Shown one piece after another: positions 2,060 through 12,633 of a DNA stretch of 12,633 nucleotides. Positions within the stretch are counted from its first letter, which is position 1. Each line of letters starts with the position of its first letter. This DNA comes from Aquifex aeolicus (GTDB lineage: Bacteria; Aquificota; Aquificia; Aquificales; Aquificaceae), in the NCBI GenBank assembly GCA_015661465.1, contig DQVZ01000030.1, forward strand, positions 1-12,633. Reading direction: 5' to 3'. Position numbers and translations under genes: made by a program. The notes beneath the pieces are model-generated. The model saw only the letters and a list, made by a program, of their open reading frames with translations, made no database searches and had not been told where the DNA came from.

Positions 2060-3748
2060 ATGAGAATTTTGTTTCTTTGTTATAGATTCAATTCTCTTTC
2101 TCAACGTTTATATTGTGAACTCACAGAAAGAGGACACGATGTTTCAATAGAACTTGACGTTCACCCAGAGCTTACGATAGAAGCTGCCGAGCTTTACAAG
2201 CCTGATTTAGTAATAGCTCCTTTCCTAAGAAGAAAGATTCCGGCTGAAGTGTGGAAAAAGTATAAAACCTTAATTGTTCATCCCGGACCTCCCGGAGACA
2301 GGGGCCCTCACGCGATAGATTGGGCTATTCTTAACAACGCTAAGCAGTGGGGTGTAATGCTTATAGAAGCATCGGAGGAATACGATGCAGGCGATATATG
2401 GGCATACAGAACTTTCCCCATGAGGTTTGCAAGAAAATCAAGTGTATACAGAAATGAAGTTACAGAAGCTGCCGTTGAGTGTGTATTAGAAGCTTTAGAA
2501 AAGTTTGAAATAGGAAACTTTGAACCTATTCCCCAAAGTGGAGAATTTACCTGGAACAAGATAGATAGGGAAGACAGAAGAGTAGATTGGGGAAAAGACG
2601 ATACCCAAACGGTTTTGAGAAAAATATATGCCTCCGACAGTCAACCAGGTGCTATAGGAATTGTGGAAGGAAACGAGTACTATCTTTACAACGCTTATCC
2701 CGAAGAACAGTTAAAGGGAAAACCAGGAGAAGTTCTAGCTCACAGAGATGAAGCAATATGTATAGCCACGAGGGACGGAGCAGTCTGGATTACACACCTG
2801 AGGGAAGTTAAAAAGGAAAGTATTAAATTGCCGGCGCTAAGGATTCTTCCCCATTTAGCAGATAAGGTTCCGGAATTAGTTATAAAGCCGTGGGAAAGAG
2901 TGGATTTTAAAACATACAGAGAAATTGAATATGTAGAAGAAGAAGGAATAGGGTACATATACTTTAGGTTCTACAACGGTGCTATGTCTACCGAACAATG
3001 TTATAGACTCCTTGAAACAATAAGATACGCTAAAAGAAGACCTATTAAAGCAATAGTTTTATTAGGCCAGGAGGATTTCTTTTCGAACGGAATGAACTTA
3101 AATACGATAGAACATTCAGAAAGCCCTCCGGATGAAAGCTGGAGAAATATAAACGCGATAGATGACGTGTGTGAGGAAATACTAAAGACTACCGATAAAT
3201 TAACAGTTGCAGGTATGCAAGGAAACGCCGGTGCAGGAGGAGTTTTTATGGCTTTAAACTGTGACCTGGTATATGCCAGAAAAGGTGTAGTATTAAACCC
3301 CCACTATAAAAATATCGGAAATCTATATGGTTCCGAGTTTTGGACTTATATTCTCCCGAAGAGGGTAGGATTAGATAAAGGGAAAGAAATAATGGATAAC
3401 AGAATGCCTATAAGCTCCTACACAGCCTTTAAGGTAGGACTAATAGACGGTGTTTTCGGAAAAACTCCTTTGGAGTTTAGAAAAATTTTAAGGAGTAAAA
3501 TAAAAGAATTTATAAACTCTCCCGAGTACCATAAGTTCATTGAAAATAAAAAAAGAGAAAGAACTAATCCTAAGTGGTTAGAAGAAATCCAAAAAGCCCG
3601 TAAGCATGAACTTGAGAGGATGAAACTTAATTTCTACGGTTTTGATACAAGCTATCACATCGCCAGATATTACTTTGTTCACAGGAAACCCCATTTCAGA
3701 ACTCCACCTTATCTTGCGAAGCACAGAAGGAAAGTAAATATAGATTGA
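2060..3748 (+). CDS. hypX: HypX/HoxX, CO-ligand synthesis protein for [NiFe]-hydrogenase maturation
   Basis: The protein has 562 residues and two domains. The N-terminal half is a formyltransferase-like domain that binds N10-formyl-tetrahydrofolate (conserved HPGPPGDRG at 74-82). The C-terminal half, from about 285, is a crotonase fold (FSNGMNL 341-347; oxyanion-hole GNAGAGG 388-394). HypX moves the formyl group to CoA and releases CO, which becomes the active-site iron ligand under aerobic or microaerobic conditions. Tyr416 and Glu426 sit where I recall the catalytic pair of the structurally studied A. aeolicus HypX, at identical numbering. The protein is cytosolic. It is encoded 11 bp after kdsB without a Shine-Dalgarno sequence and ends in a tandem stop TGATAA. 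Its position beside a hydrogenase operon fits its role. hypA-F are not in the window and must lie elsewhere. Confidence 0.95.
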   Translation: MRILFLCYRFNSLSQRLYCELTERGHDVSIELDVHPELTIEAAELYKPDLVIAPFLRRKIPAEVWKKYKTLIVHPGPPGDRGPHAIDWAILNNAKQWGVMLIEASEEYDAGDIWAYRTFPMRFARKSSVYRNEVTEAAVECVLEALEKFEIGNFEPIPQSGEFTWNKIDREDRRVDWGKDDTQTVLRKIYASDSQPGAIGIVEGNEYYLYNAYPEEQLKGKPGEVLAHRDEAICIATRDGAVWITHLREVKKESIKLPALRILPHLADKVPELVIKPWERVDFKTYREIEYVEEEGIGYIYFRFYNGAMSTEQCYRLLETIRYAKRRPIKAIVLLGQEDFFSNGMNLNTIEHSESPPDESWRNINAIDDVCEEILKTTDKLTVAGMQGNAGAGGVFMALNCDLVYARKGVVLNPHYKNIGNLYGSEFWTYILPKRVGLDKGKEIMDNRMPISSYTAFKVGLIDGVFGKTPLEFRKILRSKIKEFINSPEYHKFIENKKRERTNPKWLEEIQKARKHELERMKLNFYGFDTSYHIARYYFVHRKPHFRTPPYLAKHRRKVNID

Positions 3749-4232: not shown

Positions 4233-4655
4233 TTATTTATGCAAATTTTGCCCTATACGCTTTAAAGCCAAAAGAATGAAAGCCAAAGCTCTTTGTATAT
4301 CTTCATCAGTTAAAGCTCTTACCAATCCCGTTATACTCGTTCTGTAGTCATTCTCCTTGGTTTCAATGTATGCACTTTTTAATCCTTCTACCAATCCTGC
4401 AAATTCCGGAGAAAGCACGAATTCTATAAGTGAAGATATAGCTTTTACATCTCCCTTGTTTGCTAATTGTTCCCTCATCCTGATAATATCGTTATTTAGG
4501 CTTTCGAGTATTATAGGACTTCTCTTTATGAAACCATTTAAAGCTTCAAGCAAGAAAGCGATTATTTCGATTTTATCGTCTATATTTTCTAAAAATTCCT
4601 CTTTAATCTCTGTATTGCTCAGAAAATTTACACCATTGCTTTTATTGTAAGCCAT
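4233..4655 (-). CDS. DUF1641-like protein, paralogue B, hydrogenase-associated
   Basis: The protein has 140 residues, is helical and cysteine-free. The C-terminal DUF1641-like segment is ITGLVRALTDEDIQRALAFI (about 111-130), followed by a hydrophobic LLALKRIGQNL helix. The N-terminal half is a further helical region (about 18-95) with a weak resemblance to paralogue A. Function is unknown. Divergent transcription from the hydrogenase operon, across a shared 164-bp intergenic region, suggests co-regulation. A scaffold or membrane-docking role is inferred only. The start at 4655 is supported by an AGGAGGG Shine-Dalgarno sequence (4664-4670, minus strand) 8 nt upstream. Paralogue A follows after 13 bp, forming a two-gene operon. 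The hydrophobic C-terminal helix could pack against a partner or a membrane. Confidence 0.75.
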   Translation of the reverse strand: MAYNKSNGVNFLSNTEIKEEFLENIDDKIEIIAFLLEALNGFIKRSPIILESLNNDIIRMREQLANKGDVKAISSLIEFVLSPEFAGLVEGLKSAYIETKENDYRTSITGLVRALTDEDIQRALAFILLALKRIGQNLHK

Positions 4656-4819
4656 GATTTGTACCCTCCTTTGTAAAAAGTTCTTAACTTTAGAGATTAA
4701 GTCTGTAATTGGTATGTTATCAATTAAATTAACTTATCGAACACATAAGAAGAATAAATATTCATTCAGAAATTTTTGTCCATATTATAAGGGAGAAAAA
4801 CCTCAAGGGAGGAAATGTC
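4656..4819. promoter_or_regulatory. Divergent promoter region between DUF1641 pair and hydrogenase operon
   Basis: This 164-bp AT-rich spacer is the only place for the promoters of both divergent operons. It holds a Shine-Dalgarno sequence on each flank (minus 4664-4670; plus AAGGGAGG 4805-4812). A possible plus-strand -10 box is TATTAT at 4783-4788, with a poor -35 candidate near 4761-4766 at 16-bp spacing. On the minus strand TTGATA (4723-4718) could be a -35 element, with a weak TAATCT (4699-4694) 18 bp on. A short inverted repeat CTTAA/TTAAG flanks 4688-4696. No sigma-54 type GGCAC/TTGC element was found. Box assignments are tentative; the region call rests on gene orientation. Confidence 0.5.
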
Positions 4820-5791
4820 ATGGCTACCTTGCTTTGGTTGCACGGTGGTGCATGCAATGGAAATACAATGTCTTTTTTAAATGCTGAATATCCTTCTGTG
4901 TGTGACCTGGTTACAGATTTTGATATAGAGATTTTGTGGCACCCTTCTGCAGGCCTTGAAATGGGTGACCAAGTTAAAAATTTACTTAACGATATACTTG
5001 CAGGAAAAATACCTTTAGACATCTTCGTTTTTGAAGGAACAGTCATTTTGGGCCCTAATGGAACAGGAAGATATAACATGTTTGCAGGAAGACCTATGAA
5101 AGATTGGGTTTGGGATCTCGCTCATGTAGCAAAGTACGTAGTTGCTGTTGGAAACTGTGCATGTCAAGGTAATATACCTGCTGTTCCTCCTAATCCTACG
5201 GAATCAACCGGTTTACAATTTCATAAGACAGAAAAAGGTGGTTTCTTAGGTGCAGATTTTGTATCAAAAGGAGGACTGCCCGTAATAAACATTCCAGGTT
5301 GTCCTGCTCACTATGACTGGATTACTCAGATATTGGTAGCTTTAGCTGTAGGGAGGGCTGAGGACATCCAACTCGATGAGTTTAATAGACCTGTGACCTT
5401 CTTTAAAACCTTTTCCCAAACAGGTTGTACAAGGGTTCAATATTTTGAATGGAAAACTGCTGCTGAAGAATTTGGACAGGGAACGCGAAAAGGTTGTCTC
5501 TTTTACGAATTAGGTTGTAGGGGACCTATGACCCACGCACCGTGCAATAGAATTCTGTGGAACGGTGTAAGTTCAAAACAAAGGTCAGGACATCCTTGTA
5601 TTGGATGTACAGAGTTCGGATTTCCACACTACGACCTTGCTCCTGGAACAATATTCAAAACCCAAAAAGTTGCGGGAGTTATTCCTAAAGAGGTTGTTCA
5701 TGAAGGAGATAAGCTCACTTATATGATTCATGCAGCTGCAGCTAGAGTAGCTGCACCTAAATGGGCTAATGAAGATATGTTTGTAGTTTAA
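4820..5791 (+). CDS. hupS: [NiFe]-hydrogenase small subunit, group 2 (Huc-like, 2a/2d)
   Basis: This is the electron-relay subunit of an uptake [NiFe] hydrogenase, 323 residues. It has no twin-arginine leader and starts directly at LLWLHGGACNGN, so the enzyme is cytoplasmic. Candidate Fe-S ligands: proximal Cys12, Cys115 (or Cys113) and Cys161; distal Cys203, Cys226 and Cys233; medial Cys242, Cys260 and Cys263. Two ligands usual in standard enzymes are absent: the second Cys of the N-terminal CxxC is Asn15 (CNGN), and the His before the distal Cys is Gln200 (QTGC). The same replacements occur in Mycobacterium smegmatis HucS as I remember it (CSGN, QTGC), along with long shared stretches such as DIFVFEGTV, GLQFHKTEKGGFLG and INIPGCPAH. 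The start is fixed by AAGGGAGG seven bases upstream. It is first in the operon, 20 bp ahead of the large subunit. hucS is an equally apt name. Confidence 0.95.
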   Translation: MATLLWLHGGACNGNTMSFLNAEYPSVCDLVTDFDIEILWHPSAGLEMGDQVKNLLNDILAGKIPLDIFVFEGTVILGPNGTGRYNMFAGRPMKDWVWDLAHVAKYVVAVGNCACQGNIPAVPPNPTESTGLQFHKTEKGGFLGADFVSKGGLPVINIPGCPAHYDWITQILVALAVGRAEDIQLDEFNRPVTFFKTFSQTGCTRVQYFEWKTAAEEFGQGTRKGCLFYELGCRGPMTHAPCNRILWNGVSSKQRSGHPCIGCTEFGFPHYDLAPGTIFKTQKVAGVIPKEVVHEGDKLTYMIHAAAARVAAPKWANEDMFVV

Positions 5792-5797
5792 CTTTTC

Positions 5798-5803
5798 AGG
5801 AGG
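5798..5803 (+). promoter_or_regulatory. Ribosome binding site of the large-subunit gene
   Basis: AGGAGG lies 8 nt before ATG 5812. It rules out the in-frame GTG at 5803, which begins at the last base of this site, and fixes the start of hupL at 5812. Confidence 0.85.
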
Positions 5804-5811
5804 TGTTAGCC

Positions 5812-7446
5812 ATGGCTAACAAGCAAACTTTAGTTATAGATCCTCTTGCAAGGTTAGAAGGAGATGTAAGAGCAGAAGTTATAGTAGAAGATGGATATGT
5901 TACAGATGTTAAAGTCGAAGCCGTAATGTTCAGAGGATTTGAAATAATCCTTAAAGGCAAGGACCCGCTGGCAGGTCTAATAGTAACTCCCCGTGTATGC
6001 GGTATATGTGGAGGAAGTCACCTTTATAAGGCAGCACAGGCTATAGATACTGCATGGAAAACAGAGGTACCACCAAATGCTTGGTGGATTAGGAATATAG
6101 CCCAAGCTTGTGAAACATTACAGTCTATACCGAGGTGGTTCTATGCAATATTTGCTATAGACTTTACCAATAAAAATTACGCAAAGAGTTCACTGTACGA
6201 TGAAGTTGTAAGAAGATGGGCACCCTTTGTCGGTACGAGTTATAAAATAGGCCTTGAAATATCAGCAATACCCGTAAAAATATACGCACTTTTTGGAGGA
6301 CAATGGCCCCACTCTTCCTTTATGGTGCCCGGAGGAGTTATGTGTGCACCTCAACTGGACCACATAACCCGTGCACATGCACTCCTTGAAAGGTACAGAA
6401 CAGAATGGTTAGAAAAAGTTTGGTTGGGTTGCTCGGTAGATAGATGGTTGGAAAATAAAACATGGCAGGATATTCTAAATTGGCTTGAAGAAAATGAAAG
6501 TCACTATAACTCGGATTGTGGATTGTTTATAAGATTTTGTCTGGAAAATGGTCTTGATAAATACGGCCAAGGAGTCGGAAATTTCATTGCCTGTGGAACT
6601 TACATAGACCCAAGCTTCTACCCTGTTTCAACTATAGAAGATAGAAATAAAGCTTTAATTGCTCCATCAGGTGTAATTTACAACGGAAAATACTATACTT
6701 TCGACCATTTAAATGTTAGAGAAGATATAACCCATTCCTACTTCGAAGGTTCATGGTTACTACATCCCTGGGATGAAGATACCATTCCCCTTGACCCTGA
6801 AGAAGCTAAAAAGCAAGGAAAGTATTCTTGGGCTAAAGCTCCAAGGTATATCATAAATGGAAAGCCTGTACCATTAGAAGCAGGACCTTTAGCAAGACAG
6901 GTAGTAGCAGGATATGAAGAAGCAAAACAAAGTTGTCAGGCATCGTGCAAAATAGAACATGCTATTGATCCGCTATTTAGGAACATAGTTGAAGAGATAG
7001 GTCCAAGTGTCATGGTAAGAGTATTAGCACGTATGCACGAAGCGGTTAAGTACTACAAATGGGTAAAAGAGTGGTTAGGAAAAATAGATTTCCAAGACGA
7101 TAGGTTTTACCAAAAACCTAAGGAATTACCCGAAGGAAAAGGCTTTGGTGGAACAGAGGCAGCAAGAGGAGCGTTAATGGATTGGATTGTTATAGAAAAT
7201 GGAAAAATAAAGAATTACCAGATAGTTACTCCTACTGCATGGAACATAGGGCCGATGGACAGTCAGGGTCAAATGGGACCAATAGAAAAGGCTATAGTAG
7301 GAGCACCTATAAAGAATCCTGAAGATCCCATTGAAGTAGCCCATGTAGCCCGTAGTTTTGACTCTTGTTTAGTATGTACAGTTCACGTTTATGACAAAAA
7401 GAAAGGAAAAGAACTCGCCAGATATAAACTTGGAACCTTCAAATAA
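5812..7446 (+). CDS. hupL: [NiFe]-hydrogenase large (catalytic) subunit precursor, group 2 (Huc-like, 2a/2d)
   Basis: The 544-residue subunit carries the Ni-Fe(CN)2CO site that splits H2. The N-terminal L1 motif is RVCGICGGSH (61-70) with Cys63 and Cys66. The C-terminal L2 motif is DSCLVCTVH with Cys519, Cys522 and His525. A 19-residue tail follows His525 and should be removed by the maturation protease encoded next. Conserved RLEGD with Glu16 and GGQWPHSSFMVPGG also mark the family. Ser replaces the Pro of the usual DPCxxC motif. Like the small subunit it matches Huc-type group 2 enzymes. In Aquificota this lineage is called group 2d or hydrogenase III and has been proposed to feed low-potential electrons to the reductive TCA cycle; an Huc-like respiratory role is the alternative. 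The sequence does not decide between them. The downstream protease gene starts 22 bp later. Confidence 0.96.
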   Translation: MANKQTLVIDPLARLEGDVRAEVIVEDGYVTDVKVEAVMFRGFEIILKGKDPLAGLIVTPRVCGICGGSHLYKAAQAIDTAWKTEVPPNAWWIRNIAQACETLQSIPRWFYAIFAIDFTNKNYAKSSLYDEVVRRWAPFVGTSYKIGLEISAIPVKIYALFGGQWPHSSFMVPGGVMCAPQLDHITRAHALLERYRTEWLEKVWLGCSVDRWLENKTWQDILNWLEENESHYNSDCGLFIRFCLENGLDKYGQGVGNFIACGTYIDPSFYPVSTIEDRNKALIAPSGVIYNGKYYTFDHLNVREDITHSYFEGSWLLHPWDEDTIPLDPEEAKKQGKYSWAKAPRYIINGKPVPLEAGPLARQVVAGYEEAKQSCQASCKIEHAIDPLFRNIVEEIGPSVMVRVLARMHEAVKYYKWVKEWLGKIDFQDDRFYQKPKELPEGKGFGGTEAARGALMDWIVIENGKIKNYQIVTPTAWNIGPMDSQGQMGPIEKAIVGAPIKNPEDPIEVAHVARSFDSCLVCTVHVYDKKKGKELARYKLGTFK

Positions 7447-7468: not shown

Positions 7469-8230
7469 ATGCCTAGGGATATTGTTATAGTAGGATGCGG
7501 CAATCCGGTAAGGGGAGACGATGGAGTGGGACCATATATAATAAAAAATCTTTGGGAGAGGGGGGTGCCCCCTTACATAGAACTTTTTGATGGGGGAACA
7601 TCCGGTATTGATGTAATTTTTCACATAAAGGGAGCAAAAAAAGTTATCTTCATCGATGCTTGTAAAACGGAAGATAAACCCGGAACCGTGTATGAGCTTC
7701 CATTAAAAGAAATAGAAGAGTTACCCAATCCGCGAGAGGGTAATCTCCATTCCATAAAATGGTTTGAAGCTATAGCAATAGGTAAAGAAATTTTAAAAGA
7801 GTCATTTCCCAGAGATTGTACTGTATTTTTGATTAACGGAAAAAACTTTGAAGTAGGTGCTCCTATGTCTGATGAGGTAAAGGTGGCAGCCAGAGAGGTA
7901 ATTAATATAATTATTAATAAATATATAAGAGATTTGAGGGAAACTTATGAAGTGGAAATAACTCCCGAGGGCTACATAATATTTCCCTCTGAACTTTCTG
8001 AAAAACACTTTAAAGATTACATGAATATAGTTGTTTTCCCAAAAGATATGAAACTTTACATAACCCCTGTAAAAAGACCAGCACAGGGCGGATTATTATT
8101 GAAACGATTTAACAAAAAGGGAGATAGAGCTGCTCTAATATGGGAAATCCTTCCACCTGGAAACGTTTATGGCAAGAAAAAAGCTATCTGGTTTGATGAG
8201 GAAAAAACTTTGATAGTCTCACTAATTTAG
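7469..8230 (+). CDS. hupD: Hydrogenase maturation protease (HupD/HycI family) with C-terminal extra domain
   Basis: This endopeptidase removes the C-terminal tail of the large subunit after nickel insertion. Residues 1-150 form the protease: GCGNPVRGDDGVG (9-21), DGGTSGID (41-48), FIDA (61-64) and GNLH (91-94). Asp18, Asp63 and His94 occupy the positions of the nickel ligands Glu16, Asp62 and His93 of E. coli HybD. Residues about 160-253 are an extra segment not found in ordinary HybD/HycI (about 150-165 residues). It begins like an AbrB-type strand pair (ITPEGYIIFPSELSE) and contains GGLLLKRFNKKGDRAALIWE (207-226). I recall similar segments in proteins of group 2a operons but cannot name a function. 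ATG 7469 is chosen because AAGGTG lies 7 nt upstream and the protease core begins there. A longer in-frame ORF from 7391 would overlap hupL by 56 bp. Confidence 0.9.
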   Translation: MPRDIVIVGCGNPVRGDDGVGPYIIKNLWERGVPPYIELFDGGTSGIDVIFHIKGAKKVIFIDACKTEDKPGTVYELPLKEIEELPNPREGNLHSIKWFEAIAIGKEILKESFPRDCTVFLINGKNFEVGAPMSDEVKVAAREVINIIINKYIRDLRETYEVEITPEGYIIFPSELSEKHFKDYMNIVVFPKDMKLYITPVKRPAQGGLLLKRFNKKGDRAALIWEILPPGNVYGKKKAIWFDEEKTLIVSLI

Positions 8231-8245
8231 TAGGAGGTGTAAATC

Positions 8246-8431
8246 ATGGTTAAATTTTTAATACTTTCACTTTTATTAATGTTAGACGATGCTTCTGCCC
8301 ATATCAAACCCGTTCCCCATATACATATAGGCTTATTTCATATAGAGGATATTATCCTTGCGATTTCCATCTTTCTAATTGGAATTCTCGCATTGATATT
8401 TTTAAGGAGAAGAAGATATGTTTCCCGATAA
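8246..8431 (+). CDS. Small His-rich single-span membrane protein in hydrogenase operon
   Basis: The protein has 61 residues and I do not recognise its family. Its start is certain: AGGAGGTG (8232-8239) lies six bases before the ATG. The N-terminus (residues 2-13, Lys then a hydrophobic run) looks like a signal peptide with an ASA site at 16-18. Cleavage there would leave His19 as the N-terminus. Next comes a short His-rich segment with His19, His25, His27 and His32, then a strong transmembrane helix (about 36-54) and a cytoplasmic RRRR cluster. Predicted topology is a short periplasmic peptide, one span, and a basic cytoplasmic tail. The tail could anchor the otherwise soluble hydrogenase complex, and the histidines could bind metal or haem; both are inference. 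It overlaps the next gene by 14 bp. Confidence 0.8.
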   Translation: MVKFLILSLLLMLDDASAHIKPVPHIHIGLFHIEDIILAISIFLIGILALIFLRRRRYVSR

Positions 8432-8636
8432 AGCTTTACTTGCAGAAACCTTTGTTGAGTACCGTAGAGGTCAATGGATAGTGTATATAGAGGTTATCTT
8501 TAAAGATGAAATAGTAAAGAAAGAAGTTGGTAGATACTTTACAAAGAAAAAAGCGGAAATAGCAGCAAACTATATTCGCCGTGTTGCAAATAAAGAATTA
8601 CCATTTCCTCCAGATGGTTTAGGAGGATGCTGCTAA
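8418..8636 (+). CDS. 72-residue hydrogenase-operon protein with C-terminal GGCC
   Basis: This is a small soluble protein of unrecognised family. Residues about 8-37 look like a beta-hairpin (ETFVEYRRGQWIVYIEVIF), followed by a helix rich in Lys and Ala (about 43-59) and a Pro-rich tail ending PFPPDGLGGCC. The only cysteines are the last two residues, which could ligate a metal, form a disulphide or carry a persulfide; none of this is shown. AAGGAG (8404-8409) lies eight bases before the ATG. The gene overlaps the membrane peptide gene by 14 bp and the TPR gene by one base (TAATG), so translation is coupled on both sides. The GGA GGA codons of the tail also serve as the Shine-Dalgarno sequence of the TPR gene, which may partly constrain the Gly-Gly. 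Confidence 0.8.
   Translation: MFPDKALLAETFVEYRRGQWIVYIEVIFKDEIVKKEVGRYFTKKKAEIAANYIRRVANKELPFPPDGLGGCC
8621..8626 (+). promoter_or_regulatory. Ribosome binding site of the TPR gene, inside the preceding gene
   Basis: AGGAGG sits 9 nt before ATG 8636 but directly abuts the in-frame ATG at 8627. Spacing therefore favours 8636 as the start of the TPR protein, giving a TAATG stop/start overlap. Confidence 0.75.
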
Positions 8637-9829
8637 TGGCATGGGAAAAGATTTTTCCTCAAACAGTAGGTATTCTTCCTTCTCCTTTCTCAGTTATTTT
8701 AGTACCTTATACGAATACGGAAAATCTCAATGAGATTTTAGAGCTAAATTTTTCAAATATACCAAGCGAATGGAGATTTTTTAAAGAAATTTATCTAGGA
8801 AATTTTGATAAAGCTAAGGAAGAGATAAGTTATCTAGAAGATGAAGAATTAAAGGATTATACTATAACAATTTTAAAGTTTTCACAAAGTAATGATTTTT
8901 CTGTATTAAAGAATTTTAAGGGACACAGGTTGTTAGAAAAGTTGTTATCCCTTCTAAATCCGGAAGAAGTTATGAATGTAGAATTAACCGAAAGAGAAGA
9001 TTTTTATGTGTTTTCGGAATTTATAAAAGCCAAATTCCTTCAAAATAAAGATACATCCCGAGCTATAGCCCATTTAGACAATGCTCTTAGATACTTTTCC
9101 TTTGAATCTCCCATTTTTAAAGCTCAAGTACTCCTTTCAAAAGCCAACATTATATTCAATGAAAAAGGAGCCAGCTATCATTTAATACAGCTTTATTTGG
9201 AAATCTTAGAGTTATTAAAGAATGTAAACATACCTGAACTTAAAGGAGAAATTTTTTACCAACTGGGAAATTTGTATTCCACATTCGGAGATATTTACGA
9301 AGCTGTAAAGTATTACAGTAAAGCTTTAGAAGTTTTCACTAAAGAGAATAATCCCTATATGTATGCTTTGATAAACAACAACATGGGCTTAGCATACTTA
9401 TCCATTCAGGCGACAGATATTGAAAGTCAAGTAAAGCTTGCCTTGGGAGTACAGTGTTTGAAAAAAGCTTTAGAAGTTTTTAAAAAAGAAGAATTTCCCG
9501 AGGAGTGGGCAAGTGCTACTTTGAACTATGCAAATGCTCTCGTATACCTGCCTACCTCAAATCCTACGAAGAACCTTATTAGAGCTTTAGAGCTGTATAA
9601 GGAAGTTTTAGCGTATAGAGAGAAAACCGGAAATATGGAAGGATACGCAAGAGTTCTAGCCAATATGGGAAACGTTTTAGCTCATTTAGGTCACCTAAAG
9701 GAAGCAAAGAAAAAGTTGAAGAAAGCAAGGGAAATATTTATATCCTTAAAGCTTTTTGAAGAAGCTGCAGGTGTTGATGAAATCTTAAAAGAAATTCAAA
9801 GTATGGAGGCGGCTAAAAATGGAGAGTAA
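8636..9829 (+). CDS. TPR-repeat protein of the hydrogenase operon
   Basis: The protein has 397 residues, no signal peptide and is mainly helical. The first 120 or so residues are a less repetitive region (ending near the EDFYVFSEF segment). Helical hairpins follow. Clear tetratricopeptide units lie at about 204-237 (QLGNLYSTFGDIYEAVKYYS), 242-284, a degenerate one at about 289-331, and one at about 335-372 (MGNVLAHLGHLKEAKKKLKK). TPR arrays bind partner proteins, so an assembly or scaffold role for the hydrogenase complex is inferred. A TPR gene at this position, between the protease/small proteins and the NifU-Rieske and NHL genes, is a feature I recall of group 2a (Huc) loci in mycobacteria and Nitrospira. 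The next gene starts 11 bp before this one ends. Confidence 0.85.
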   Translation: MAWEKIFPQTVGILPSPFSVILVPYTNTENLNEILELNFSNIPSEWRFFKEIYLGNFDKAKEEISYLEDEELKDYTITILKFSQSNDFSVLKNFKGHRLLEKLLSLLNPEEVMNVELTEREDFYVFSEFIKAKFLQNKDTSRAIAHLDNALRYFSFESPIFKAQVLLSKANIIFNEKGASYHLIQLYLEILELLKNVNIPELKGEIFYQLGNLYSTFGDIYEAVKYYSKALEVFTKENNPYMYALINNNMGLAYLSIQATDIESQVKLALGVQCLKKALEVFKKEEFPEEWASATLNYANALVYLPTSNPTKNLIRALELYKEVLAYREKTGNMEGYARVLANMGNVLAHLGHLKEAKKKLKKAREIFISLKLFEEAAGVDEILKEIQSMEAAKNGE

Positions 9830-10625
9830 AAGTAAAATTTCATTGGAAAAGATAGCTGAGGAAATAGACAATTTAATAGATAGTTTTAAAGAAGAGGATG
9901 AATCTGTAAAAGAGAGAGTTAAAAAACTAATTGAGTTAATAGAAGAATTTAACCGTATAGGTATTAAAAAAATTGTGAAATTATTAAAAGAACATCCTGA
10001 GGGTAAATCTATTTTAATGACGTTAGTAAAAGAACCTGAGGTCTACGCTTTATTTTTAAAACACGGGATTATTAAGCCAAACGTAAAAACACAAATAGCT
10101 ATGGTACTGGAAAAGGTGAGACCTTACGTAAAATCACACGGTGGCGATATTGAATTTGTAGAACTTCAAGGGGATACTGTTATAGTCAAAATGTACGGTT
10201 CATGTGTAGGATGTTCACAAATAGAAACCACTTTACGGGAGGGAATCCTCGAAATTATAAAACAAAAGTTTCCTCAGATAAATAATATAAGGGTCATACC
10301 CGTAAGAGTTAAAAATAAAAACGGTAAAGAAAAGAGAATCATTCCTTTAGATACTTTGAAAGAAGGTGAAGTATTTAACTACAAGGATGAGGATATAGAT
10401 ATCATACTTATACAATATAATGGGGGAATATACGCCTATTACAACGCGTGTCCACATCAAGGACTTAGCCTTGAAAATGGGGATTTGTCGGAAGAAGTTT
10501 TAACTTGCCCATGGCACGGGTTTAAATATTTAGTTACCTCCGGAGAATGTTTAACGGTAAATTACCTTCAGTTAGAACCTGTCGAAATATTCGTAAAAGA
10601 TAATTGGATATGGGCGAGAGTTTAA
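9819..10625 (+). CDS. NifU-domain/Rieske [2Fe-2S] fusion protein (HucE-like)
   Basis: The protein has 268 residues in three parts. Residues 1-85 are a charged helical region. Residues about 90-162 are a NifU C-terminal-like domain with GSCVGC (Cys129, Cys132) after the typical SHGGDIEFV stretch; this domain binds an Fe-S cluster between two chains in other proteins. Residues about 172-268 are a Rieske domain with CPHQG (Cys211, His213) and CPWHG (Cys230, His233), the full ligand set for a [2Fe-2S] cluster. No signal peptide or membrane helix is seen, so it is cytoplasmic. It resembles the predicted Fe-S protein HucE of the M. smegmatis huc operon, a candidate electron acceptor from the hydrogenase; that role is inference. 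GGAGG (9805-9809) lies nine bases before the ATG, inside the TPR gene. Confidence 0.9.
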   Translation: MESKSKISLEKIAEEIDNLIDSFKEEDESVKERVKKLIELIEEFNRIGIKKIVKLLKEHPEGKSILMTLVKEPEVYALFLKHGIIKPNVKTQIAMVLEKVRPYVKSHGGDIEFVELQGDTVIVKMYGSCVGCSQIETTLREGILEIIKQKFPQINNIRVIPVRVKNKNGKEKRIIPLDTLKEGEVFNYKDEDIDIILIQYNGGIYAYYNACPHQGLSLENGDLSEEVLTCPWHGFKYLVTSGECLTVNYLQLEPVEIFVKDNWIWARV

Positions 10626-11665
10626 AAGCACATCCTATACTTGAACTTGGTGAACCCTCAAAGGGAGGTTTTATGCTACCCTGTAAATCTGTATCAAACA
10701 GAGCAATGTATAGTCCCAGAGGGGTTTTTTATGACGGAAACATTTTAGTAGTAGCTGATACGGGAAATCACAGGGTATTAATATGGTTTTCCTTACCTGA
10801 GGAAGATTATACACCTGCCGATGTGGTACTAGGTCAAAGAGATTTTTTATCTGATAGTCCAAATGCGGGAGGAAATCCGGAGATAGGAATGTATATGCCT
10901 TGCGGTGTATTTATAAAAGATAGAAAATTATTCGTAGCAGATTCCTGGAATCACAGAATACTCGTTTGGGAAACTATTCCTGAGGAAAATGGTAAAAAGC
11001 CTGATTACGTTATAGGCCAAAAAAATCTAAAGGAAGTAGAGCCTGTGAAAGGATTAGAAGCAAAAGGCTTTTTCTGGTGCTACGGTCTATCTTTTTATAA
11101 AGACTACCTTTTAGTTTGTGATACGGGAAATAGAAGAATCATAGGTTGGAAAGGTGAATTTGATTATTGGAAAGAACCTGATATCATTATCGGTAAACGC
11201 TACAATTATCAATGGCCTCACCATATTTCTTCTAACGGAGAGATAACGTTTATAGCTGATGCCGGGTTACACCGTGTGGTCGGATACAAAAAAATACCTC
11301 AAGATTCCGTCCCAGAAGTTGTTTTAGGTCAAAAGGACCCTTTTCATGTTTCTGAAAACTTAGAAATGCAGAGTGAAAAAACTTTAAGATTTCCTTACGG
11401 AGTCGGTTTATCGGATAAATTTTTAGCTATTGCCGATACGGGTAATCATCGGGTTCTCGTATGGAAAAATATACCTGAGCGGGGATATGGAATTCCGGCA
11501 GATATAGTATTAGGACAGAGAAACTTTCAAGAATGCGGGGAAAATAGATGGGAAGGAATCAAGAAAGATACACTGTGTTGGTGTTATGGGGTACATGTAT
11601 ATGACAATCTTATATTTATTGCAGATTCCGGAAATAACAGAATTGTTGTTTGGAAACTGGGCTAA
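10610..11665 (+). CDS. NHL-repeat beta-propeller protein of the hydrogenase operon
   Basis: The protein has 351 residues and no signal peptide or membrane helix. Six NHL blades are readable from the pattern PxGVxxxxxxxxVADTGNHRVLxW: cores near residues 49-60, 110-121, 169-180, 216-227, 275-286 and 338-349. Loops carrying VLGQRDF link most blades. This predicts a six-bladed propeller, typical of a protein-binding platform; catalysis is less likely. Cysteines recur at equivalent blade positions (PCG in blade 2, WCYG in blades 3 and 6). An NHL gene closes the huc-type accessory set in other group 2a loci as I recall them. ATG 10610 is preferred because the first repeat (ILELGEP) needs it; it overlaps the Rieske gene by 16 bp and lacks its own Shine-Dalgarno sequence. 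TTG 10604 and ATG 10673 are alternatives. Confidence 0.87.
   Translation: MGESLKAHPILELGEPSKGGFMLPCKSVSNRAMYSPRGVFYDGNILVVADTGNHRVLIWFSLPEEDYTPADVVLGQRDFLSDSPNAGGNPEIGMYMPCGVFIKDRKLFVADSWNHRILVWETIPEENGKKPDYVIGQKNLKEVEPVKGLEAKGFFWCYGLSFYKDYLLVCDTGNRRIIGWKGEFDYWKEPDIIIGKRYNYQWPHHISSNGEITFIADAGLHRVVGYKKIPQDSVPEVVLGQKDPFHVSENLEMQSEKTLRFPYGVGLSDKFLAIADTGNHRVLVWKNIPERGYGIPADIVLGQRNFQECGENRWEGIKKDTLCWCYGVHVYDNLIFIADSGNNRIVVWKLG
10661..10668 (+). promoter_or_regulatory. Internal Shine-Dalgarno-like sequence in the NHL gene
   Basis: AAGGGAGG lies four bases before an in-frame ATG at 10673. Initiation there would remove 21 residues, including the first repeat strand. The spacing is short, so this is a possible secondary start only. 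Confidence 0.3.
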
Positions 11666-11740: not shown

Positions 11741-12633
11741 ATGAAGTAGATTAAGTTAAAAAGGAACAAAGTAAAAGTTTATGGAAAGCCTGCAAAAATT
11801 TTAATGAAAGGTTTAACAGCTCCCGAAGAACATACCCACTTTCTCCACGGACTACTTACCAATGACATAAAATCCTTGAAACCTTATACATTCAATTACA
11901 ATTTGTGGTTAAAACAAAATGGTAATCCGATAGCGGATTTTTTGTTTATAAAATCAAGGATTACTATATACTCGATACTGAAGAAGATGGGGAATTTGTA
12001 ATAAATGAGTTCACAAAATTAAAATTATCCTTAAAGGTTTATTTCGATAACTTAGATTCATACGAACACATTTTTATCTACGGGGAAGGAGCTGAAGCCT
12101 TTGTAAAAGAAAAATTGGGAATCCGATTAAAAGATTACGAAGTGAAAGAGATTAAAGAGGATGTATTCCTGGCAAAGAATCCGGTAAGACTGAAAGAAAT
12201 AGGTTTTGATTTGTTTGGCAATATAGGGAAATTAATCAAGGAATTGTCCGAAAAGGCTAAAGTTTCCGAAGAAGAGTTTGAAGAGGAAAGGATAAAGAAC
12301 TGTATTCCCAGAATCCATAAAGAATTAAGGGAAGGATTTTCACCTTTAGAAGCGGGAGTACTTTCTTACGCAATAAGCTTGAATAAAGGTTGTTATGTAG
12401 GCCAGGAAGCAATAGCAAGAGTATACTTCAGAGGTAGAACTCCCAGAACTCTCATTAAATTTAAAGTTTTGGAAGGTGTTAAGGAAGGAGATAGAATACT
12501 GGAAGAGGGGAAAGCAGTAGGATTAATAACTTCTCTATCACCTTCCGGAAACATAGCATTAGGGTATATGCTTAGAGCTAAATTAGAGTTGGAAAAGGAA
12601 TATAAAACCGAGGAAGGAAGAGTAAATGTCTTA
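11741..12633 (+). pseudogene. ygfZ: YgfZ/GcvT-like folate-binding protein gene, broken by a stop and a frameshift; 3' end cut by window edge
   Basis: YgfZ proteins bind folate and support repair or assembly of Fe-S enzymes. The C-terminal part shows the family signature KGCYVGQEA (near 12388-12414), and the N-terminal part has FLHGLLTND. The reading is broken twice. From ATG 11741 the frame reads Met-Lys-TAG (11747-11749) and then continues IKLKRNKVKVYG into the conserved region. The stop probably stands for a Trp codon (TGG to TAG), although ATG 11804 could start a shorter product. At the T6 run 11938-11943 one T is missing relative to a coherent reading. The original frame stops at 11999-12001, while the shifted frame (ADFFVYKIKDYYILDTE) stays open to the window end. 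Two lesions suggest a decayed gene; assembly or homopolymer errors could also explain them. It lies 75 bp after the hydrogenase operon on the same strand. Confidence 0.8.

What the first reader, a model, noticed from the sequence alone, without database searches (positions are those of the whole stretch)
4820..5791. Huc-type Fe-S ligand changes in a hydrogenase of a putative thermophilic Aquificota
Seen: CNGN (Cys12, Asn15) instead of CxxC at the proximal cluster and QTGC (Gln200, Cys203) instead of HxxC at the distal cluster, with three Cys left for each of the three clusters. Known, from memory: M. smegmatis HucS has the same substitutions and was reported to contain three [3Fe-4S] clusters and to oxidise H2 at atmospheric levels in air. 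Inference: this enzyme may have the same unusual high-potential relay, which sits awkwardly with the proposal that the Aquificota enzyme supplies low-potential electrons to the reductive TCA cycle.
Basis: partly seen in the sequence, partly recalled or inferred. Interest (0 to 1): 0.7.

Follow-up and report, generated by a model that had tools for sequence, protein, structure and literature searches.

The report
Huc-type quinone-reducing hydrogenase of an Aquifex
A relative of the heat-loving bacterium Aquifex carries an operon for the hydrogen-burning enzyme Huc, beside two overlooked partner genes that probably connect the enzyme to the membrane's quinone pool.

Summary
Window 4820-5791 encodes a HucS orthologue with CNGN (Cys12/Asn15) and QTGC (Gln200/Cys203), 70% identical to M. 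smegmatis HucS. It is a group-2a (Huc) enzyme, a subgroup already reported in Aquificota. It is not the 2d-like enzyme linked to the reductive TCA cycle: the same genome has a separate 2d-like pair, so the "awkwardness" falls away. Asn15 also occurs in 2d-like and some group-1-like small subunits. Gln200 is typical of Huc but is His in some Actinobacteria. Three [3Fe-4S] clusters cannot be inferred from ligands alone: cyanobacterial HupS with the same pair was assigned [4Fe-4S] by EPR. New here: the two divergent DUF1641 genes beside hucS belong to the Pfam family that includes HucM, Huc's quinone-delivering stalk. All 14 Huc genomes found among 136 Aquificota have one beside hucS. A same-genus genome without Huc hits keeps only decayed copies. 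In 8 of 10 other genomes DUF1641 follows an SQR-like gene. Best reading: a cytoplasmic H2:menaquinone oxidoreductase feeding O2 respiration, a known kind of enzyme with a neglected second half.

The parts
4820..5791 (+). hucS: group 2a [NiFe]-hydrogenase small subunit, no signal peptide by eye; Lys212, Tyr229 and Tyr301 (menaquinone site of HucS) conserved
   Evidence: quinone residues named in PMC10017518
4853..4864 (+). codons of Cys12-Asn-Gly-Asn15, proximal-cluster motif CxxN
5417..5428 (+). codons of Gln200-Thr-Gly-Cys203, distal-cluster motif QxxC
5803..7446 (+). hucL: [NiFe]-hydrogenase large subunit; RVCGICGGSH and DSCLVCTVH motifs; His170 aligns with PDB-chain position 165, taken to be the D-His166 of the Huc paper (offset of one assumed)
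7469..8230 (+). hucD-like maturation protease (start chosen at the MPRDIV Met) with a C-terminal extension of about 90 aa that is a separate ORF in some other Huc operons
8246..8431 (+). 61-aa small protein with a hydrophobic stretch (by eye); found in 2 of 13 other Aquificota Huc loci; weakly constrained (dN/dS 0.64)
8418..8636 (+). 72-aa small protein of unknown function, found in 11 of 13 other Aquificota Huc loci
8627..9829 (+). TPR protein of the Huc operon (12 of 13 other loci; the 13th contig ends before it)
9819..10625 (+). hucE: NifU-like domain (CVGC) fused to a Rieske domain (CPH-x16-CPWH); 12 of 13 other loci
10604..11665 (+). NHL-repeat protein of the Huc operon; 11 of 13 other loci
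4233..4655 (-). DUF1641a: HucM-family subunit, divergent from hucS, 140 aa
3764..4219 (-). DUF1641b: second DUF1641 paralogue, 151 aa, adjoining DUF1641a
4656..4819 (.). 164-bp divergent intergenic region between DUF1641a and hucS; Shine-Dalgarno-like sites on both sides (by eye)
2060..3748 (+). hypX-like gene, close to solved HypX/HoxX 6j0p; found beside the locus only in the window and L055 of the 14 Huc genomes, and present in the Huc-less G002, so not Huc-specific

Best explanation
The operon encodes a cytoplasmic, Huc-type (group 2a) H2:menaquinone oxidoreductase. HucL splits H2. Electrons pass along three clusters in HucS that lack the usual fourth ligand at the proximal and distal positions, to a quinone bound beside the distal cluster (Tyr229/Tyr301/Lys212). 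The divergently transcribed DUF1641a, probably with its paralogue DUF1641b, is the HucM-family membrane adapter that scaffolds the enzyme and gives it access to membrane quinone. HucE (NifU-Rieske), TPR, NHL and HucD support assembly or electron transfer. Reduced quinone is re-oxidised by haem-copper oxidases. Low-potential electrons for CO2 fixation, if a hydrogenase supplies them at all, would come from another enzyme such as the separate 2d-like pair. Shown by sequence: the ligand residues, the 2a placement, the operon, the DUF1641 family membership and association, and a second hydrogenase in the genome. Inferred: complex formation, quinone reduction, aerobic role. Unknown: cluster nuclearity, H2 affinity.
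For: HucS and HucL match M. smegmatis Huc over nearly full length (E 1.5e-160 and 3e-241). In a 30-row tree the window sits in a 14-row 2a clade with HucS (93/99, just short of the tool's strong mark), apart from an 8-row 2d-like clade (100/99). Quinone-site residues are conserved. The operon matches the published companions HucE, NHL and maturation factors. DUF1641: 11 of 11 alignment members hit PF07849. A fragment of M. smegmatis HucM scores 23.9 bits against a cut-off of 21. A mixed 11-member profile finds HucM at E 1.4e-12 and ForE1 at 8.7e-6. DUF1641a-type versus actinobacterial HucM gives hhalign probability 88, E 3.2e-6. All 14 Huc genomes of 136 Aquificota have DUF1641 beside hucS; 10 of 122 others have DUF1641 anywhere (Fisher p 4.6e-13, not corrected for relatedness). 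It tracks Huc, not 2d: 54 genomes have a 2d-like match of 180 bits or more (label by identity only), 40 of them without Huc, and 35 of these 40 have no DUF1641. G002 has no Huc hit and keeps only decayed DUF1641 pieces at the syntenic spot. Eight of the 10 non-Huc cases lie directly downstream of SQR-like genes. ForE (DUF1641) is required for menadione reduction by a formate dehydrogenase (PMC8808070). dN/dS is 0.08 and 0.06 for DUF1641a and b. Own genome: two COX1 matches (68), two PF02621 menaquinone-pathway matches (106), two PF01855 POR/OGOR-type matches (107).
Against: Without intermediate sequences HucM is not found significantly. DUF1641a alone: HucM E 0.15, ForE1 0.45. The L015 protein alone: ForE1 0.0092, HucM not listed at E up to 10. 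Profile A2: HucM 0.053-0.17, with an unrelated effector at 0.17. Profile A7: HucM 0.16-0.17. DUF1641b profiles: no HucM, hhalign probability 17. ForE1 is the better match of these profiles (0.0041, 0.00044, 0.061, 0.0033). The significant profile contained an actinobacterial gene in the HucM position. Both DUF1641 proteins are shorter than HucM (140 and 151 versus 188 aa). In two of the 14 loci (L058, L059) the DUF1641 pair is also followed, in the same direction, by a 2d-like pair (in L058 after a CobW/HypB-like gene), so there it could serve that enzyme. Two 2a loci, Sphingopyxis and Runella, have no DUF1641 within 7 kb. Models of DUF1641a are poor (pLDDT 58.4 and 65.5) and the better one matched nothing in the PDB. 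I found no biochemistry on this enzyme.
Confidence: 0.78

Rival explanations
1. One reading: a Huc-like relay of three [3Fe-4S] clusters, tuned to high potential for trace or atmospheric H2 oxidation in air.
For: Same ligands and 70% HucS identity to M. smegmatis Huc, for which three [3Fe-4S] clusters were reported. Group 2a-bearing species of three other phyla oxidise sub-atmospheric H2 as whole cells (PMC7784904).
Against: Cyanobacterial HupS with the same Asn/Gln pair was assigned [4Fe-4S] proximal and distal clusters. Atmospheric H2 is an unlikely main substrate for a presumed vent hydrogenotroph (inference). Some Huc enzymes keep a HucM-family gene yet have His at the distal site.
Confidence: 0.45
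2. Proximal and distal [4Fe-4S] clusters ligated by Asn and Gln, as proposed for cyanobacterial HupS; potential less raised than in Huc.
For: PMC6616624 and PMC5297734 passages, citing EPR work that I could not read.
Against: M. smegmatis Huc was assigned [3Fe-4S] from 1.5 A maps and EPR of the whole enzyme. By its title, the 2013 HupS work used the isolated small subunit.
Confidence: 0.35
3. A group 2d (hydrogenase III) type enzyme that reduces ferredoxin for the reductive TCA cycle.
For: The host is Aquificota with POR/OGOR-type genes. Hase III was proposed for this role.
Against: The window enzyme is outside the 2d-like clade. The genome has its own 2d-like pair. H2-derived electrons may be too weak for these ferredoxins (PMC10052474 discussion).
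Confidence: 0.05
4. The DUF1641 genes serve assembly, or another enzyme such as the 2d-like hydrogenase, rather than quinone coupling of Huc.
For: Direct similarity to HucM is weak. In L058 and L059 a 2d-like pair follows the DUF1641 pair in the same direction.
Against: 14 of 14 adjacency to hucS, 35 of 40 2d-like-only genomes without DUF1641, decay in Huc-less G002, and adjacency to SQR-like genes elsewhere; ForE precedent.
Confidence: 0.14

Closest known systems
Huc, group 2a hydrogenase of Mycobacterium smegmatis (PDB 7utd, 7uur, 7uus, 8dqv; PMC10017518)
   Same: Asn15/Gln200 ligands, nine cluster Cys, Lys212/Tyr229/Tyr301 quinone site, HucL His position, HucE; HucM belongs to the same Pfam family as the neighbouring DUF1641 genes
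   Different: Two divergent, shorter DUF1641 genes instead of one hucM directly upstream of hucS; HucD with an extra domain; cluster types and affinity unmeasured
Group 2a hydrogenases of other Aquificota (PMC7784904 counts 4 genomes and names Hydrogenobacter thermophilus)
   Same: Same operon core, and a DUF1641 gene beside hucS in all 13 other genomes found here
   Different: Sequence divergence only as far as seen (HucS 77-91% identical in 12 of them, 100% in G003). Thermocrinis and Hydrogenobacter names for G050, G052 and G024 are inferred from equal contig lengths
Cyanobacterial HupS/HupL
   Same: Reported Asn proximal and Gln distal ligand changes
   Different: EPR assignment there is [4Fe-4S] proximal and distal; I fetched no cyanobacterial sequence
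2d-like hydrogenase of the same genome (L068)
   Same: CxxN proximal motif, Tyr229/Tyr301
   Different: His distal ligand, 41-46% identity, no DUF1641 on its 3.7-kb contig
ForE1/YjgD (8rqz) and YjlC / NDH-2 membrane coupling protein (9snk, 9pxk)
   Same: Matched by the DUF1641 profile; ForE is a partner of a soluble quinone-linked enzyme
   Different: Partners are a formate dehydrogenase and, by PDB names, NDH-2, not a hydrogenase

Membership tests
Group 2a (Huc) [NiFe]-hydrogenase | Small and large subunits most similar to HucS/HucL, small subunit within 2a by tree | tested here: met
   HydDB itself not run, no large-subunit tree
Group 2a (Huc) [NiFe]-hydrogenase | CxxN proximal and QxxC distal motifs, nine cluster cysteines | tested here: met
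Group 2a (Huc) [NiFe]-hydrogenase | Operon with HucE (NifU-Rieske), NHL protein and maturation factors | tested here: met
   set described in PMC7784904 and PMC6883350
Group 2a (Huc) [NiFe]-hydrogenase | Menaquinone-site residues Lys212, Tyr229, Tyr301 | tested here: met
   also present in 2d-like enzymes, so not discriminating
Huc complex with HucM stalk | HucM homologue encoded beside hucS | tested here: met
   Met at Pfam-family level; direct similarity to HucM weak
Huc complex with HucM stalk | Octameric complex on a membrane stalk, direct menaquinone reduction | not testable with these tools
   needs purification and cryo-EM
Three-[3Fe-4S] relay | All three clusters are [3Fe-4S] | not testable with these tools
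   ligands compatible; conflicting precedents
High-affinity atmospheric H2 oxidiser | Sub-atmospheric H2 consumption in air | not testable with these tools
   needs whole-cell or enzyme kinetics
Group 2d hydrogenase (A. aeolicus Hase III type) | Placement in the 2d-like clade; distal His | tested here: not met
   the 2d label of the comparison clade is inferred
DUF1641 (PF07849) | Score above the curated Pfam cut-off | tested here: met
   39.6 and 46.1 bits versus 21

The most novel reading that the evidence does not exclude
HucM is one branch of a broad DUF1641 family of plug-in quinone-access subunits that attach unrelated soluble enzymes (Huc hydrogenase, formate dehydrogenase, NDH-2, sulfide:quinone reductase) to the quinone pool. 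The Aquificota Huc uses a two-component stalk made of two DUF1641 paralogues encoded divergently from hucS.
Probability: 0.4. Interest if true: 0.65.

Novelty: new member of a known kind. Interest (0 to 1): 0.45.

Why it matters
The ligand changes alone are ordinary for group 2a. What adds value is that a 'domain of unknown function' next to Huc in 14 of 14 Aquificota Huc genomes found belongs to the HucM family. This suggests how these thermophiles put H2 electrons into quinone and separates that route from the reductive-TCA question. Cultured Huc-bearing Aquificota would be a source, probably heat-stable, for settling whether Asn/Gln ligands hold [3Fe-4S] or [4Fe-4S] clusters, a real conflict in print. 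Actinobacterial Huc enzymes with His instead of Gln give a natural comparison.

Tried and rejected
Group 2d reading: rejected by the tree and by finding a separate 2d-like pair. Asn15 as a Huc mark: rejected, because 2d-like small subunits and group-1-like ones of Hydrogenothermus, Persephonella and Sulfurimonas also have CxxN. Gln200 as strictly required: rejected. Of 158 HucS sequences 145 are Asn/Gln, 11 Asn/His, and two have a gap at residue 15 (one Gln, one His). Those 158 are the listed hits of two capped searches, the second seeded with a His-type query, so the fraction is biased. Cys28 or Cys115 as replacement ligands: unlikely. Structure: two AlphaFold runs on DUF1641a gave pLDDT 58.4 and 65.5. 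Foldseek and VIA-align on the second returned no chain, so structure is uninformative. Double entries: L005, L006, L007, L008, L013 and L015 are the same records as L055, L056, L057, L066, L065 and L067, and were not counted twice.

Literature: no paper in the held library carries both 'DUF1641' and 'HucM'. One lists a DUF1641 gene in a Huc operon and does not contain 'HucM' (PMC12976888, passages). HysM, an archaeal HucM homologue, is in print (PMC11018855, passages). A search for DUF1641 with quinone terms gave 432 papers; none of the 10 rows listed holds DUF1641. Preprints and most subscription journals are not covered, and no paper behind PDB 9pxk or 9snk was found. Seen of each paper: PMC7784904 passages and one section; PMC10017518 abstract, outline and passages; PMC12976888, PMC8808070, PMC11018855, PMC10052474, PMC5297734, PMC6616624 and PMC6883350 passages; all others only as search listings.

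Full report
WHAT IS THERE. The ORF at 4820-5791 (323 aa) is the small subunit of a [NiFe]-hydrogenase (PF01058 + PF14720). It aligns from residue 2 to the end with M. smegmatis HucS (7uur_D, E 1.5e-160; 70% identity). Cys12-x-x-Asn15 and Gln200-x-x-Cys203 stand at the same positions as in HucS; the group-1 chain 1e3d has CxxC and HxxC there. Nine conserved cysteines, these two included, fit three clusters. The next ORF is HucL (E 3e-241 to 7uus_A), with both nickel-binding motifs and the His taken to be the D-His of Huc. Downstream follow a maturation protease, two small proteins, a TPR protein, a NifU-Rieske HucE and an NHL protein. HucE and NHL proteins are published companions of group 2a (PMC7784904 section; PMC6883350 passages).

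HOW SPECIAL ARE THE LIGANDS. Asn15 is not a Huc mark. It is in the 2d-like enzymes of Aquificota and Campylobacterota (L016-L024, L058, L059, L068) and in group-1-like small subunits of Hydrogenothermus, Persephonella and Sulfurimonas. The C. necator regulatory hydrogenase has Cys there and an Ideonella relative has Asp. Gln200 discriminates better. The Huc loci examined from Aquificota, Thermus, Sulfobacillus, a Bacillota MAG, Sphingopyxis, Runella and M. smegmatis have it. The 2d-like loci have His, and so do three Microbacterium Huc loci, although these group with M. smegmatis HucS (93/99) and keep a DUF1641 gene; this looks like a reversion. Over 158 collected HucS sequences the counts are 145 Asn/Gln, 11 Asn/His and 2 with a gap at residue 15 (partly seeded with a His-type query).

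WHAT THE LIGANDS DO NOT TELL. M. smegmatis Huc was reported with three [3Fe-4S] clusters and a raised onset potential (PMC10017518 passages). For cyanobacterial HupS with the same Asn and Gln, two papers report, citing Raleiras and colleagues, [4Fe-4S] clusters at proximal and distal sites (the first speaks of the distal cluster only); the original was not held. The nuclearity of the Aquificota enzyme is therefore open. I lean slightly to the Huc assignment because it rests on a high-resolution map plus EPR of the whole enzyme. I have no cyanobacterial sequence to say which is closer.

2a, NOT 2d. In a 30-row tree the window enzyme falls in a 14-row clade with HucS (93/99), and the 8 2d-like rows form a separate clade (100/99) (midpoint root, several long branches). 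The window's own genome (1.32 Mb, 82% complete, 307 contigs) carries a separate 2d-like small and large subunit on contig C151 (L068). All 14 Huc genomes also show a 2d-like match. The idea that a cytosolic Aquificota hydrogenase feeds ferredoxin concerns Hase III / group 2d, and the 2023 paper doubts it (PMC10052474 passages). Group 2a in Aquificota, including H. thermophilus, is already in print.

THE OVERLOOKED HALF. Divergent from hucS lie two small genes with DUF1641 domains (46.1 and 39.6 bits, cut-off 21). A profile of 11 such neighbours from several phyla finds HucM in the PDB at E 1.4e-12, then ForE1 at 8.7e-6, YjlC at 7.3e-4 and an NDH-2 membrane coupling protein at 1.4e-3. A fragment of M. 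smegmatis HucM itself passes the Pfam cut-off (23.9 bits). Taken without intermediates the match to HucM is in the noise: DUF1641a alone E 0.15; its profiles 0.053-0.17 and 0.16-0.17; the L015 protein alone and the DUF1641b profiles do not list HucM. ForE1 is found somewhat better (0.00044 to 0.061 by profile). Profile-profile comparison gives probability 88 for DUF1641a-type versus actinobacterial HucM, 17 for DUF1641b-type, and 97.8 for a versus b (some rows of these profiles are unnamed, one is filed under an archaeal MAG). Both genes are under purifying selection (dN/dS 0.08 and 0.06).

ASSOCIATION. Of 136 Aquificota genomes, 14 have Huc (HucS at least 77% identical) and 24 have DUF1641 (3 of 14 named control genomes also have it). 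All 14 Huc genomes are among the 24, and in all 14 a DUF1641 gene adjoins hucS: 11 as the divergent pair, one (L065) with a single divergent gene, two (L066, L067) with one co-directional gene. In L058 and L059 a 2d-like pair follows the DUF1641 pair in the same direction. Against a general link to 2d: 54 genomes have a 2d-like match of 180 bits or more, 40 of them lack Huc, and 35 of these 40 have no DUF1641. Of the 10 non-Huc genomes with DUF1641, 8 have it directly downstream of an SQR-like gene: G029, G031, G032, G033, G080, G088, G089 and G090. In G033 that gene is matched in three pieces. In G093 the contig ends inside DUF1641. The family call was run on the G080 protein only; its best NCBIfam match, type III SQR, is below that model's cut-off (345 versus 525 bits). 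The tenth, G002 (91% complete), is of the window's genus and has no Huc hit. Its syntenic TrmFO-KdsB-HypX block is followed by a broken DUF1641b and a 28-aa stub of DUF1641a, and no huc gene is matched on that contig. Fisher's test gives p 4.6e-13, but the genomes are related, so this is only a guide. Outside Aquificota, DUF1641 lies near hucS in Thermus, Sulfobacillus, a Bacillota MAG and Microbacterium, but not within 7 kb in Sphingopyxis or Runella.

MECHANISM. ForE, a DUF1641 protein, is required for menadione reduction by a Bacillus formate dehydrogenase (PMC8808070 passages). HucM scaffolds Huc around a stalk that brings in menaquinone (PMC10017518 abstract and passages). The simplest reading is that DUF1641 proteins give soluble oxidoreductases access to membrane quinone, and that the window's pair does this for Huc. 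The genome has two menaquinone-pathway PF02621 matches and two haem-copper oxidase matches; no cytochrome bd was found (the genome is incomplete). HypX, which works in aerobic maturation (recalled), adjoins the locus in the window and L055, but also stands in Huc-less G002.

VERDICT. The cluster inference is plausible but unproven, and the carbon-fixation conflict is removed. The HucM-family neighbours are the part worth following.

Noticed in passing
L106 3982-4600 (G002:C136): Same-genus genome without Huc hits keeps the TrmFO-KdsB-HypX block followed by decayed DUF1641 remnants, probably the relict of a lost huc locus.
   Followed up: yes
L107, L108, L109, L118-L122: In eight Aquificota genomes DUF1641 proteins lie directly downstream of a type III sulfide:quinone-reductase-like gene.
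   Followed up: partly
L058 10010-13792; L059 1002-5842: In two genomes the DUF1641 pair stands between hucS and a 2d-like hydrogenase pair and runs in the same direction as the latter, so both hydrogenases are clustered.
   Followed up: partly
L011, L012, L014 8001-8972: Microbacterium Huc small subunits have His instead of Gln at the distal site yet group with M. smegmatis HucS and keep a DUF1641/HucM gene.
   Followed up: partly
window 7469-8230: HucD has a C-terminal extension of about 90 aa that appears as a separate small ORF in Microbacterium and some Hydrogenothermaceae Huc operons: a fusion or a split.
   Followed up: partly
window 8246-8431; L006 15797-15991: A 61-aa protein with a hydrophobic stretch in the Huc operon has a relative beside a second protease gene in L006; it is only weakly constrained (dN/dS 0.64).
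   Followed up: no
window 11804-12633: A GcvT/YgfZ-like reading frame is split over two frames; both pieces match GCV_T models only below the cut-off. Real decay or a sequence error.
   Followed up: partly
L016 5860-7101, L022 3571-4821, L023 8733-10007: Group-1-like small subunits with twin-arginine-like leaders (by eye) carry CDGN/CAGN, i.e. Asn at the proximal ligand position outside group 2.
   Followed up: partly
L071, L072: 2a loci of Sphingopyxis and Runella have no DUF1641 gene within 7 kb, so their quinone coupling may differ or be encoded elsewhere.
   Followed up: no
L009; protein P0141: A 3.3-kb Huc contig filed under an Anaerolineae MAG and a DUF1641 protein filed under an Aigarchaeota MAG look like Aquificota sequence, perhaps misbinned.
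   Followed up: no
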